Shown: in pieces, positions 5,615 through 8,281 of the stretch
Layout: each line of letters begins with the position of its first letter
Position numbering within the stretch: the first letter of the stretch is position 1
Assembly: GCF_001870225.1 (NCBI RefSeq)
Contig: NZ_CP017675.1
Coordinates: forward strand, 1,693,372 to 1,732,946
DNA: 39,575 bases
Reading direction: 5' to 3'
Source: Gloeomargarita lithophora Alchichica-D10
GTDB taxonomy: Bacteria; Cyanobacteriota; Cyanobacteriia; Gloeomargaritales; Gloeomargaritaceae
Notes under the pieces: model-generated
Told to the model about the DNA's origin: nothing
Seen by the model: only the letters and a program-made list of their open reading frames with translations
Databases searched by the model: none
Position numbers and translations under genes: made by a program

Positions 5615-6763
5615 CTACCCCCGCAGTTGAATCGGCATCACCAGATAGGTCATTTTCAGCTCCCCCAGGGGTGAAAATATCACCGGGGCAGTGGCGGAAT
5701 TTAACTGCATCTGCACCTGGGAGGATTGCATCGCCTTCAGCCCCTCCAGCACATACTTCACATTAAAAGCCACATCCAATGCTTCCCCCTCAATCTCCGC
5801 CGGAATTTGCTCCTGGCCTTGCCCCAATTCCCCGCCCTCCGTCGCCAGGATCACATTATCCAAATCCAGGGAAAATTTCACCACATTGCGACTGCCCGCC
5901 AACACCGCCAACCGCTCCAAAGCATGGATCAAATCCTCCCGCTCCATCACCACCCGGCGAGCAAAATCCTTGGGCAGTAACTGGCGATAATTTGGATACA
6001 TCCCATCCAACAACCGGGTCACCAACCGCTGGTGAAACCCCTCCCCCGCAACCACAGGCAGTTGAAAATCCGCCTGGTGGGGTTCCAGAGCAAACCGCAC
6101 CACCTCCCCCTCGTACTTGGGCAAAAGCCGCTCCACCTCCCGCAAAGCCCTGGCCGGAATCGTGGCCTGCACCGGCTCCCCAAGGCTGGTCAATTCGGTT
6201 TCCACAATTGCCAAACGATGCCCATCCGTAGCGGCAAATTCCAGGGTTTCCCCCCGAGTTTGCAAATGCACCCCGGTCAAAATCTGCTTGGTTTCATCAC
6301 TACTAGCGGCAAACAACACCCCCTTTAATCCCTGCAAAAATGCCTCTCGCTCCAAGGGCACCGCCGTTGCGGTCACCTCAGGTAAGGCCGGGAAGTCCTC
6401 CCCAGGCAGGCCAGAAATCTGATAAGGTCCCGCCAGGGTATCTTTCTTCCCTTCCCGTTCCAGGCGGGCGCGCAGAGTCGCCTGCAAGTCAGCAATTTTA
6501 ATTTCCACCTCCGCCGTGGGTAAACGGGAAACCAAATCCCCCAAGGTGCGGGCGGGTAAGGTAATAGTTCCCGACTCATACACGGTCGCAGCCATCTGGC
6601 TTTGTAAACACAAGGTTTGATCAAAAGCACTCAAAATGACCTGATTACCGTCCGCTGAAAACAACACATTCGCCAAAATGGGATTCGTAGGTCGGTTGGC
6701 CACTGCACGGCTGACCATGCTCAAGTGGTTGCTCAAATCTTTTTGGGAACAGGTCACATACAT
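5615..6763 (-). CDS. dnaN: DNA polymerase III beta sliding clamp
   Basis: DnaN forms the ring that holds the replicative polymerase on DNA. The 382-residue protein shows the three clamp subdomains: an N-terminal MYVTCSQKDLSNHLSMVSRAV, a middle domain with TGVHLQTRGETLEFAATDGHRLAIVE, which is the family signature, and a C-terminal domain ending in the conserved VIFSPLGELKMTYLVMPIQLRG (the P-M-x-L/I-R tail that contributes to the peptide-binding pocket). The start is the ATG of MYVTCSQ. It is transcribed leftwards, away from the DnaA-box cluster that begins about 110 bases upstream, so it is co-oriented with a fork leaving the origin. No dnaA gene is in the window. Confidence 0.98.
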   Translation of the reverse strand: MYVTCSQKDLSNHLSMVSRAVANRPTNPILANVLFSADGNQVILSAFDQTLCLQSQMAATVYESGTITLPARTLGDLVSRLPTAEVEIKIADLQATLRARLEREGKKDTLAGPYQISGLPGEDFPALPEVTATAVPLEREAFLQGLKGVLFAASSDETKQILTGVHLQTRGETLEFAATDGHRLAIVETELTSLGEPVQATIPARALREVERLLPKYEGEVVRFALEPHQADFQLPVVAGEGFHQRLVTRLLDGMYPNYRQLLPKDFARRVVMEREDLIHALERLAVLAGSRNVVKFSLDLDNVILATEGGELGQGQEQIPAEIEGEALDVAFNVKYVLEGLKAMQSSQVQMQLNSATAPVIFSPLGELKMTYLVMPIQLRG

Positions 6764-6853
6764 ACCGGCAATTTACCCCAGAGTGATGCCATCCTGCCAC
6801 CCCAATTTTCCAGCCGTGCCTCTACTCCGGTCTAAAAGATCAAAAATTTTCTT

Positions 6854-6883
6854 TAGTAGATAGTAGTAGAGGCCTGTGGATAT
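6854..6883 (+). other. candidate DnaA-trio unwinding element
   Basis: Five TAG trinucleotides (6854-6859 and 6861-6869, with one extra A at 6860) are followed by a short GC-rich spacer AGGCC (6870-6874) and then a DnaA box at 6875-6883. This order of trinucleotide tract, GC-rich gap and DnaA box is that of the basal unwinding system described for Bacillus subtilis, where DnaA spreads from the box onto single-stranded trios. It sits at the dnaN-proximal edge of the box cluster. Confidence 0.6.
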
Positions 6884-7092
6884 GTGGATAACTTATGTGG
6901 ATTATTGACGGCGACGGGGTTTGCCACCCCACCCCCCTGTGGATAACTTGTGGATAACCTGTGGATAAAATCCTAAGTTATCCACAGCCCCCTTTTTTTA
7001 TCCACAACCCCCCCCGATTTATCCCCAAATAATCCACAGGCCAAGCCCGACTTATCCACAGATTTTTGCCACTTATCCACAGGTTATCCACA
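6854..7092. other. chromosomal replication origin (oriC): DnaA box cluster
   Basis: Nine perfect DnaA boxes are present. Four read TGTGGATAA on the + strand (starts 6883, 6938, 6949, 6960) and five read TTATCCACA (starts 6978, 6998, 7052, 7073, 7084). There are four near matches at 6875 (TGTGGATAT), 6896 (TGTGGATTA), 7019 (TTATCCCCA) and 7030 (TAATCCACA). The two orientations form left and right arms that meet between 6968 and 6978, and several neighbours are exactly 11 bases apart (6938/6949/6960 and 7073/7084). The location in the dnaN-thiO gap and the absence of any other gene support this as the initiation site. DnaA would bind here in its ATP form and melt the adjacent DNA. Confidence 0.95.
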
Positions 7093-7098
7093 GGTTTT

Positions 7099-7200
7099 GC
7101 GCCAAAAACTGTAATAATTTTTAATAATTTGATTTTTGATTTAGAGCCGTTAAAAGCCTAATAATGTCCTAATAGTGTCTATCACTAGTGTACAGCGAAT
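7099..7200. other. AT-rich segment beside the DnaA boxes, alternative unwinding region
   Basis: Immediately right of the last DnaA box the sequence becomes very AT-rich (TAATAATTTTTAATAATTTG and similar) and includes the near-repeat CCTAATAATGTC / CCTAATAGTGTC at about 7157-7180. It contains no gene. It could be a duplex-unwinding element on the thiO side of the origin, or the 3' flank of thiO. Confidence 0.4.
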
Positions 7201-7222
7201 TGCCAGATAATGACTTCAAAAA

Positions 7223-8281
7223 TTACAGAAGTTCTAGGGAGCTGGCAAAGCGATTCCACCGGCAAAAATCCAGTTCTGAAGGCCAGGGTTGACCGTTTAG
7301 ATAATTGCCAATCAATTCTGCGGTGATGGGTGCGAGTAAAATCCCATTCCGGTAGTGGCCGGTGGCGAGGGTGAGATTCTCCCAGGGGCTAGGGCCGAGG
7401 ATGGGACATTCATCGGGGGTGACCGGTCGGTAACCCCACCAGGTTTCCAAGATGGGCCAATCCTGGAGCGGGGGATAGGTGTGGATGGCTCGTTCCAGGA
7501 GGCTGTGCAACCCACCTGCGGTGATACCCCCTTGAAACCCCACGTCTTCATTGGTCGCCCCCACCACCAAGCGTCCATCCCGGCGGGGGACGAGGTAGGC
7601 ACTGGCGAAAACCACCTGGTTCAAGGCGGGGGCATGGGGTGCTTGGAGTGCCAGCATTTGCCCTTTGCGGGGGTGGACGGGCAGGGAGAGCAGTTTTTGC
7701 GTCCAAGCACCGGTGGTTAAAATGTAATGCGCCGCTTGATGGGAAGCCTGATGGGTAACGACTTGGGTAATCCGGTCGCCAACCGGTTCGATGCGTACCA
7801 CGGTTTCCTGGGAAAAGAAGTGAACCCCCAGGGTTTGGGCAACGTGACGCAGAACTTGGGTCAGCAAGCGGTTGTCCACCTGGCCATTGTCGGGATACCA
7901 CCACCCGCCCTGGAATTGCGCCCCTAGCCCCGGTTGTTGCCGGTCAAGTTCCCCCCGGTTGAGCCAAATTCCCCTGTGGTATCCCATCGCTTGGCTGGTC
8001 ACCGGCACCAGGATACCGCAAGGCCAGTAACCGGTGGTTTTGCCGGTGCGTTCTTCCAAATCCTGAATCCACGTTGGGTATCGTTGCAAACTGGCCTGAC
8101 ACAAATCGAGCAGGGCACCGGCGGGTATTTGTTCTGCACCGGGGGCGAGCATTCCAGCGGCGGCGGGGGTAGCAGTACTGGGGAAACCGCCCTCCACAAT
8201 TCCCACTTGGCGTTGCGTTTTCGCTAGTTCTACGGCAGTACTTAACCCGATGATGCCGCCGCCGATGATTAAAACATCCAT
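7223..8281 (-). CDS. thiO: glycine oxidase ThiO (FAD-dependent)
   Basis: ThiO oxidises glycine to iminoglycine, a precursor for the thiazole ring of thiamine. The 352-residue protein starts with the FAD-binding motif DVLIIGGGIIGLSTAVELA and has the D-amino-acid-oxidase fold signatures: AAAGMLAPGAEQ after the flavin site, KGQMLAL in the middle, VPRRDGRLVVGATNEDVG, and a C-terminal LTLATGHYRNGILLAPITAE flavin loop. Length and order fit a stand-alone ThiO; in many cyanobacteria ThiO is fused to ThiG, which is not the case here. The gene is transcribed towards the origin, with no partner thiamine gene nearby. Confidence 0.9.
   Translation of the reverse strand: MDVLIIGGGIIGLSTAVELAKTQRQVGIVEGGFPSTATPAAAGMLAPGAEQIPAGALLDLCQASLQRYPTWIQDLEERTGKTTGYWPCGILVPVTSQAMGYHRGIWLNRGELDRQQPGLGAQFQGGWWYPDNGQVDNRLLTQVLRHVAQTLGVHFFSQETVVRIEPVGDRITQVVTHQASHQAAHYILTTGAWTQKLLSLPVHPRKGQMLALQAPHAPALNQVVFASAYLVPRRDGRLVVGATNEDVGFQGGITAGGLHSLLERAIHTYPPLQDWPILETWWGYRPVTPDECPILGPSPWENLTLATGHYRNGILLAPITAELIGNYLNGQPWPSELDFCRWNRFASSLELL

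What the first reader, a model, noticed from the sequence alone, without database searches (positions are those of the whole stretch)
6854..6883. A TAG-trinucleotide tract, GC spacer and DnaA box match the DnaA-trio unwinding architecture
Seen: TAG x2, one A, TAG x3, then AGGCC, then TGTGGATAT and immediately TGTGGATAA. In the B. subtilis unwinding system, trios of this form lie next to a GC-rich gap and DnaA boxes, with the trio strand in the same relative orientation. The match in a cyanobacterium, on the dnaN side of the box array, suggests that melting starts at 6850-6870 and not in the longer AT-rich tract on the thiO side. That both candidate sides exist is itself unusual.
Basis: partly seen in the sequence, partly recalled or inferred. 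Interest (0 to 1): 0.6.

Follow-up and report, generated by a model that had tools for sequence, protein, structure and literature searches.

The report
Origin-opening element of a cyanobacterium
The TAG repeats beside the DnaA boxes look like the standard bacterial element where the chromosome is opened to start replication, kept nearly letter for letter in relatives; the element is a known kind, though comparing many origins also turned up a possible light-regulator site on the opposite flank.

Summary
Confirmed: TAG×2 (6854-6859), A, TAG×3 (6861-6869), AGGCC, then tandem DnaA boxes at 6875 and 6883. The element has the sequence features of the known basal unwinding system (BUS), already shown in vitro for Synechococcus elongatus DnaA (PMC8287927): a new member of a known kind. 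The inner three trios are unchanged in all 7 family relatives (63/63 positions; background 0.563); the outer two, out of phase, are not conserved (27/42). A strict trio-spacer-tandem-box pattern occurs in 152 of 291 class genomes (reversed control: 1). Of 119 pan-bacterial matches, trios face dnaN in 89 of 93 with dnaN nearby. The published rule accepts only the dnaN-side flank. Melting at about 6833-6869 is thus the best reading, although 7114-7143 is the least stable stretch. Two sides are not unusual: inverted box arms are the class norm (105 of 139). Against: sampled GC skew is irregular, and some distant relatives keep boxes without trios. New lead: HLR1-like repeats (RpaB-type sites) flank the opposite arm across the class (discovery 32/82 vs 6.3 in shuffles; hold-out 19/56 vs 6.0), but this window's own copy is no better than chance. 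Melting and binding are untested.

The parts
6833..6862 (+). AT-rich, low-stability stretch directly 5' of and overlapping the trios; predicted opening site
   Evidence: second least stable 30-bp window of the intergenic region; in 118 of 138 class origins the trio-side flank is the less stable one, this genome being an exception
6854..6859 (+). outer TAG x2, one base out of phase with the core
   Evidence: 27 of 42 positions conserved in 7 relatives: weak support as a working part
6861..6869 (+). core DnaA-trios, TAG x3 (3'-GAT-5' read from the box)
   Evidence: 63 of 63 positions conserved in 7 relatives; meets the rule of at least three trios
6870..6874 (+). GC-rich spacer AGGCC (5 bp; 4 bp in the 7 relatives)
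6875..6883 (+). trio-proximal DnaA box TGTGGATAT (1 mismatch)
   Evidence: invariant in 8 genomes
6883..6891 (+). second DnaA box TGTGGATAA (exact), 13 bp from the trios
   Evidence: invariant in 8 genomes; part of the longest invariant run 6872-6893; 13 bp is the commonest published spacer (PMC8287927)
6896..6968 (+). rest of the left arm: boxes at 6896 (1 mismatch), 6938, 6949, 6960 (exact), oriented towards the trios
6978..7092 (-). right arm: seven boxes at 6978, 6998, 7019, 7030, 7052, 7073, 7084 in the opposite orientation (5 exact, 2 with 1 mismatch)
7108..7143 (.). thiO-side AT-rich tract; least stable 30 bp (7114-7143); genus-conserved TGTAATAATTTTTAA; best HLR1 match of this genome at 7111-7128 with 4 of 16 mismatches (chance level)
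5615..6763 (-). dnaN, DNA polymerase III beta subunit
   Evidence: TIGR00663 over cut-off
7223..8281 (-). thiO, glycine oxidase
   Evidence: TIGR02352 over cut-off

Best explanation
6833-6891 is the basal unwinding system (BUS) of the chromosome origin. DnaA docks on the tandem boxes at 6883 and 6875; a DnaA filament starts there, passes the GC spacer and captures bases of the three TAG trios (6869 back to 6861) on the + strand, opening the AT-rich stretch beside them (about 6833-6869) for helicase loading. Shown here: the anatomy, its conservation and an intact DnaA. Inferred from B. subtilis and S. elongatus work: docking, base capture, opening and helicase loading. The right box arm probably helps DnaA assembly but lacks trios and is not the melting side (inferred).
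For: Only the dnaN flank meets the published rule, with 13 bp from three TAG trios to an exact box. Core trios 63/63 in 7 relatives against background 0.563 (0.354 in G007); longest invariant run of the intergenic region is the spacer end plus both boxes. Strict pattern in 38 of 59 relatives, control 0 and 152 of 291 class genomes, control 1; 34 of the 37 genomes with a located dnaN have it beside dnaN. 100 of 119 pan-bacterial stretches hold dnaA or dnaN, trios facing dnaN in 89 of 93. DnaA keeps N187, I190, I193, R202, E228, R264. S. elongatus DnaA opens its own box-trio scaffold (PMC8287927).
Against: In this genome the thiO-side stretch 7114-7143 is less stable than the trio side. Sampled GC skew gives no clear origin shift. 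139 of 291 class genomes lack the strict pattern, and L023, L028 and L031 keep tandem boxes with no TAG trios. Only three in-phase trios, the stated minimum. No biochemical data.
Confidence: 0.87

Rival explanations
1. The duplex opens in the longer AT-rich tract on the thiO side (7099-7200), driven by low stability beside the right box arm; the TAG tract is secondary.
For: 7114-7143 is the least stable 30 bp of the region; the tract is conserved in the genus, 118 of 156 positions.
Against: No BUS candidate on that flank by the published rule; 5 of 26 positions kept in G007; class-wide the trio flank is the less stable one in 118 of 138.
Confidence: 0.06
2. The element is intact but the chromosome does not depend on it: replication starts from several sites without DnaA, and the locus survives as a minor or transcription-control site for dnaN.
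For: Irregular sampled GC skew; irregular skew goes with DnaA-independent replication in some cyanobacteria (PMC7198777, abstract and passages).
Against: 63/63 conservation of trios, which have no known role except as a DnaA ssDNA site; intact DnaA; only 19 stretches were sampled, so the skew result is weak.
Confidence: 0.06
3. The thiO-side tract is a diverged HLR1-like site for an OmpR-type regulator (RpaB or RpaA) that modulates DnaA assembly. This concerns the other flank and is compatible with the main reading.
For: HLR1-like sites enriched just beyond the right arm: 32/82 vs 6.3±2.2 in shuffles, spacing peak at 10, hold-out 19/56 vs 6.0, max 11, and by genus 10/20 vs 1.6; 2-mismatch copies in G004, G005, G007; RpaB equivalog present.
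Against: This genome's best copy has 4 of 16 mismatches, as expected by chance; 37 of 56 hold-out genomes have no site; spacing 13 is also raised, 5 vs 1.3.
Confidence: 0.2
4. Chance: simple TAG repeats that happen to lie beside boxes.
For: TAG trinucleotides are short and simple.
Against: 1 of 20,000 shuffles; recurrence in 152 of 291 genomes with control 1; 63/63 conservation.
Confidence: 0.01

Closest known systems
Bacillus subtilis basal unwinding system, DnaA-boxes 6/7 plus DnaA-trios (PMC6669920 passage, PMC10721633 passages, PMC8287927 sections)
   Same: Two co-oriented boxes, short GC spacer, three or more 3'-GAT-5' trios, AT-rich stretch beyond, trios towards dnaN.
   Different: dnaA is 573 kb away; boxes overlap by one base (8 bp pitch); only three trios in phase; no biochemical test here.
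Synechococcus elongatus BUS (PMC8287927)
   Same: A cyanobacterial box-trio module; unwinding shown in vitro with cognate DnaA and abolished by trio or ssDNA-site mutation.
   Different: The S. elongatus sequence was not seen in the paper text; many cyanobacteria here use TGTGGAAAA boxes at 9 bp pitch, this genome TGTGGATAA at 8 bp.
Escherichia coli oriC with its AT-rich DUE (recalled; BUS score reported as weak, PMC8287927)
   Same: DnaA box array beside a low-stability tract.
   Different: Here a strong trio tract sits beside the boxes, so an AT-only opening model is not needed.
MtrA boxes in the Mycobacterium tuberculosis oriC (PMC4285127, passages)
   Same: Direct repeats for an OmpR-type response regulator at oriC: a precedent for the HLR1-like lead; MtrA is the second-best profile for this genome's RpaB.
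   Different: MtrA boxes lie between DnaA boxes; the HLR1-like repeats lie outside the right arm and binding is unknown.

Membership tests
DnaA-trio / basal unwinding system (BUS) | At least three trios with a middle A, mostly 3'-GAT-5' | tested here: met
   TAG x3 in phase, 6861-6869
DnaA-trio / basal unwinding system (BUS) | DnaA box within 16 bp, commonest distance to the better box 13 bp | tested here: met
   5 bp to a 1-mismatch box, 13 bp to an exact box
DnaA-trio / basal unwinding system (BUS) | Tandem co-oriented boxes | tested here: met
   6875-6883 and 6883-6891, same strand
DnaA-trio / basal unwinding system (BUS) | Lies in the chromosome origin (box cluster near dnaA or dnaN) | tested here: met
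   13 boxes with at most 1 mismatch between dnaN and thiO; 9 of 52 exact boxes of the genome. GC skew did not corroborate
DnaA-trio / basal unwinding system (BUS) | DnaA with the ssDNA-binding and arginine-finger residues | tested here: met
   N187, I190, I193, R202, E228, R264 equivalents present
DnaA-trio / basal unwinding system (BUS) | Conservation of trios with the boxes | tested here: met
   63/63 in 7 relatives; 152 of 291 in the class
DnaA-trio / basal unwinding system (BUS) | Trio-dependent strand separation and origin activity | not testable with these tools
   needs purified DnaA or genetics
HLR1 (RpaB) site on the thiO side of this window | Match to (G/T)TTACA(T/A)(T/A)NN(G/T)TTACA(T/A)(T/A) | tested here: not met
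   best 4 of 16 mismatches at 7111-7128
HLR1-like sites beside cyanobacterial oriC right arms (class level) | Enrichment over shuffles, repeat spacing 10 | tested here: met
   discovery; hold-out
HLR1-like sites beside cyanobacterial oriC right arms (class level) | Binding by RpaB or RpaA | not testable with these tools
   only the presence of an RpaB equivalog was shown

The most novel reading that the evidence does not exclude
Many cyanobacterial origins are two-sided machines: one box arm aims DnaA at the trios, where the duplex opens, and the opposite arm is flanked by an HLR1-type direct repeat where the light- and redox-responsive regulator RpaB (or RpaA) binds and decides whether DnaA may assemble. 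That would help explain why DnaA's hold on oriC in S. elongatus falls in darkness and with photosynthesis inhibitors while DnaA level stays constant. In this window's genus the oriC copy has drifted, but a second conserved DnaA-box cluster 323 kb away carries a perfect HLR1.
Probability: 0.2. Interest if true: 0.75.

Novelty: new member of a known kind. Interest (0 to 1): 0.38.

Why it matters
The module gives a base-precise prediction of where this chromosome opens, and a marker (one site per matched genome) for finding oriC in a class where GC skew often fails; three genomes here carry it more than 100 kb from dnaN (G024, G036, G049). Nearly identical modules in Thermus, Sporosarcina and this genome support the published view that the element is ancestral. 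If the HLR1-like sites beside the other arm are bound by RpaB, the question of how photosynthesis gates replication initiation becomes directly testable.

Tried and rejected
GC skew as support for the origin: 19 sampled 20-kb stretches plus the window gave irregular values with no clear shift, so skew neither helps nor settles the matter.

Loss of dnaA as the reason for missing modules: of 41 chosen genomes (40 without the strict pattern, plus G274 with it), 38 have DnaA over the cut-off. The three without (G142, G149, G156) lack the pattern, but so do 37 with DnaA. Loss of dnaA does not explain most absences; the strict pattern also misses variants such as TGGGGA first boxes in L011 and L026.

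A second BUS on the thiO flank: none by the published rule. The only opposite-strand candidates (TAAAAAAAG and GATAAAAAA before the box at 6978-6986) lie inside the array and hold no TAG.

TGTAATAATT as a special word: five copies of TGTAATAATTNTT in the genome, two of them beside DnaA-box clusters; left as a lead.

Inverted partner GCCTCTACT (6818-6826) of AGTAGAGGC (6865-6873) as a hairpin: seen by eye and not tested in this genome. The class test of mirror trios is carried largely by one genus.

Name: the genome (3,049,282 bp, one contig) is probably Gloeomargarita lithophora; this is recalled from genome size and no call named it. The genome-contig scan may leave out the window's own record. 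Whether DoriC already lists a trio for this genome was not checked.

Full report
Observation. By the parts are TAGTAG 6854-6859, A 6860, TAGTAGTAG 6861-6869, AGGCC 6870-6874, box TGTGGATAT 6875-6883 and box TGTGGATAA 6883-6891; the boxes overlap by one base. The flanking genes are dnaN (5615-6763, -) and thiO (7223-8281, -), both over NCBIfam cut-offs. dnaA lies about 573 kb away at C1:1126621. 9 of the genome's 52 exact TTATCCACA copies fall in this intergenic region.

More than chance. A pattern covering the element hits one place in the genome and the reversed control none. 1 of 20,000 mononucleotide shuffles of the 111 bases to the left reproduced TAGTAGTAG within 16 bp of the boxes.

Published rule. 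PMC8287927 (passages and the results section) asks for a DnaA box with at most 2 mismatches, a spacer of 0-16 bp and at least three trios with a middle A; the commonest spacer is 13 bp. On both strands of 6764-7222 the only flank candidates are the TAGTAGTAG run with 13 bp to the exact box and with 5 bp to the one-mismatch box. The thiO flank has none; two opposite-strand candidates lie inside the array and hold no TAG. The same paper reports trio-dependent unwinding by S. elongatus DnaA, so a cyanobacterial trio is not new.

Close relatives. dnaN was found in 58 of 59 genomes; six others share the genus and one (G007) the family. All seven keep TAGTAGTAG, a GC spacer and both boxes. The longest invariant run of the intergenic alignment is GCCTGTGGATATGTGGATAACT (6872-6893). 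Core trios score 63/63, the outer TAG x2 27/42, background columns 1268/2254 = 0.563 (0.354 for G007). The spacer is 5 bp here and 4 bp in the seven relatives; with the 8 bp box pitch the exact box is 13 bp from the trios here and 12 bp there.

The class. The strict pattern is in 38 of 59 relatives and 152 of 291 class genomes, one site per matched genome in the second search; the reversed control gave 0 and 1. Of the 37 matched genomes in which located dnaN, 34 have the module within about 600 bp of it; G024, G036 and G049 have it elsewhere, and G050 gave no dnaN. In 139 fetched origins the spacer is 4 bp in 135, and spacer plus pitch is 13 bp in 123. The trio flank is the less stable one in 118 of 138, with AT content 0.83 and 0.90 at 10-20 and 20-30 nt from the trio end. 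This genome is an exception: its thiO-side window 7114-7143 is weaker than 6833-6862. 139 of 291 lack the strict pattern; some have variant boxes (L011, L026), and L023, L028 and L031 keep tandem boxes with no TAG trios.

Beyond the class. 100 of 119 contain dnaA or dnaN by tblastn with this genome's proteins, and trios face dnaN in 89 of 93 with dnaN. Thermus arciformis (L075) and a Sporosarcina (L085) carry almost the same letters. The dnaN-facing orientation is the common arrangement, kept here although dnaA lies elsewhere.

DnaA. The genome's DnaA aligns to B. subtilis DnaA (8btg) over its length and has the equivalents of N187, I190, I193, R202, E228 and R264. PMC10721633 (passages) reports severe growth defects for alanine at the first five; R264 is the arginine finger in PMC8287927.

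Two sides. The box array is two inverted arms, six boxes then seven. A strict two-arm order holds in 63 of 82 and 42 of 57 fetched origins, 105 of 139 in all. Two sides are therefore ordinary in the class. The thiO-side AT tract is conserved in the genus (118/156) but not in G007 (5/26).

What the other flank may be. Reading right flanks by eye suggested TTTACA-type direct repeats like HLR1, the RpaB site (consensus from PMC11633204, passages). Within 100 bp beyond the right arm, 32 of 82 genomes have a match with at most 3 of 16 mismatches against 6.3±2.2 in shuffles (max 12); 13 of the 15 best are on the + strand; KTTACA pairs peak at spacing 10, 15 against 1.3. This set includes genomes in which I first saw the motif (such as G012), so I wrote down a test and fetched 57 further origins. 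Result: 19 of 56 against 6.0 (max 11 of 200 shuffles), first genome of each genus 10 of 20 against 1.6, left-flank control 7 of 57 against 10.5, spacing 10 seen in 6 against 1.0. Against it: spacing 13 is also raised (5 against 1.3), 37 of 56 have no site, two genomes that I guess to be S. elongatus-like from size (G018, G037) show coding-like sequence there, and this window's best match has 4 of 16 mismatches, which is chance level. The genome encodes an RpaB equivalog; MtrA, the next-best profile for that protein, binds direct repeats in the M. tuberculosis oriC (PMC4285127, passages). In S. elongatus, DnaA binding to oriC falls in darkness and with photosynthesis inhibitors while DnaA level stays constant (PMC6478999, passages). 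Searches of the held open library for RpaB with oriC, HLR1 with DnaA, and RpaA with oriC and related terms found no paper on such a link; in the two cyanobacterial replication papers RpaB stands only in the reference list.

Caveats. GC skew, sampled in 19 stretches, is irregular; PMC7198777 (abstract and passages) ties irregular skew to DnaA-independent replication in some species, so a relic or minor origin is not excluded. Nothing here measures melting, binding or replication. The genus name is recalled, not shown.

Verdict. A well-formed, conserved BUS: a new member of a known kind. Opening at about 6833-6869 is the best-supported reading; the HLR1-like flank found across the class is the new lead.

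Noticed in passing
L161 (G000 C1:1377400-1378500), outside the window: A second DnaA-box cluster (three exact boxes at 1377895-1377968 plus several near-boxes) upstream of an ORF that looks like a glycolate-oxidase-type FAD subunit (not tested), flanked by a perfect HLR1 (GTTACATTTTGTTACA, 1377871) and a one-mismatch copy (1378013); conserved in G001-G006, with a weaker match in G007. Possibly a DnaA titration or regulatory site.
   Followed up: partly
L008 (G003), L009 (G007), L263, L264, L317-L323; remnant at window 6818-6826: Mirror trios: (CTA)n on the trio strand 20-45 nt 5' of the trios in 19 of 139 origins against 5.7 in shuffles (max 11), forward TAG repeats 1; strongest in one genus (g29), where trios on both strands flank an AT-rich core. 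G007 also has a box, spacer and CTACTCC in mirror orientation. Could mark a second-strand loading site.
   Followed up: partly
window 6870-6874: This genome's spacer has one more base (AGGCC) than its seven relatives (4 bp), restoring the 13 bp trio-to-exact-box distance seen in 123 of 139 origins despite the 8 bp box pitch.
   Followed up: partly
G024, G036, G049: The module lies far from dnaN (more than 100 kb), in G024 next to dnaA instead: the module can locate oriC where gene neighbours mislead.
   Followed up: partly
L023, L028, L031 (G057, G053, G040): Tandem DnaA boxes upstream of dnaN kept, but no TAG trios beside them; candidates for lost trio-dependent opening although DnaA is present.
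   Followed up: no
window 6896-6904: The third left-arm box (TGTGGATTA) is the least conserved of the array, 0.746 identity, while the two boxes beside the trios are invariant.
   Followed up: no
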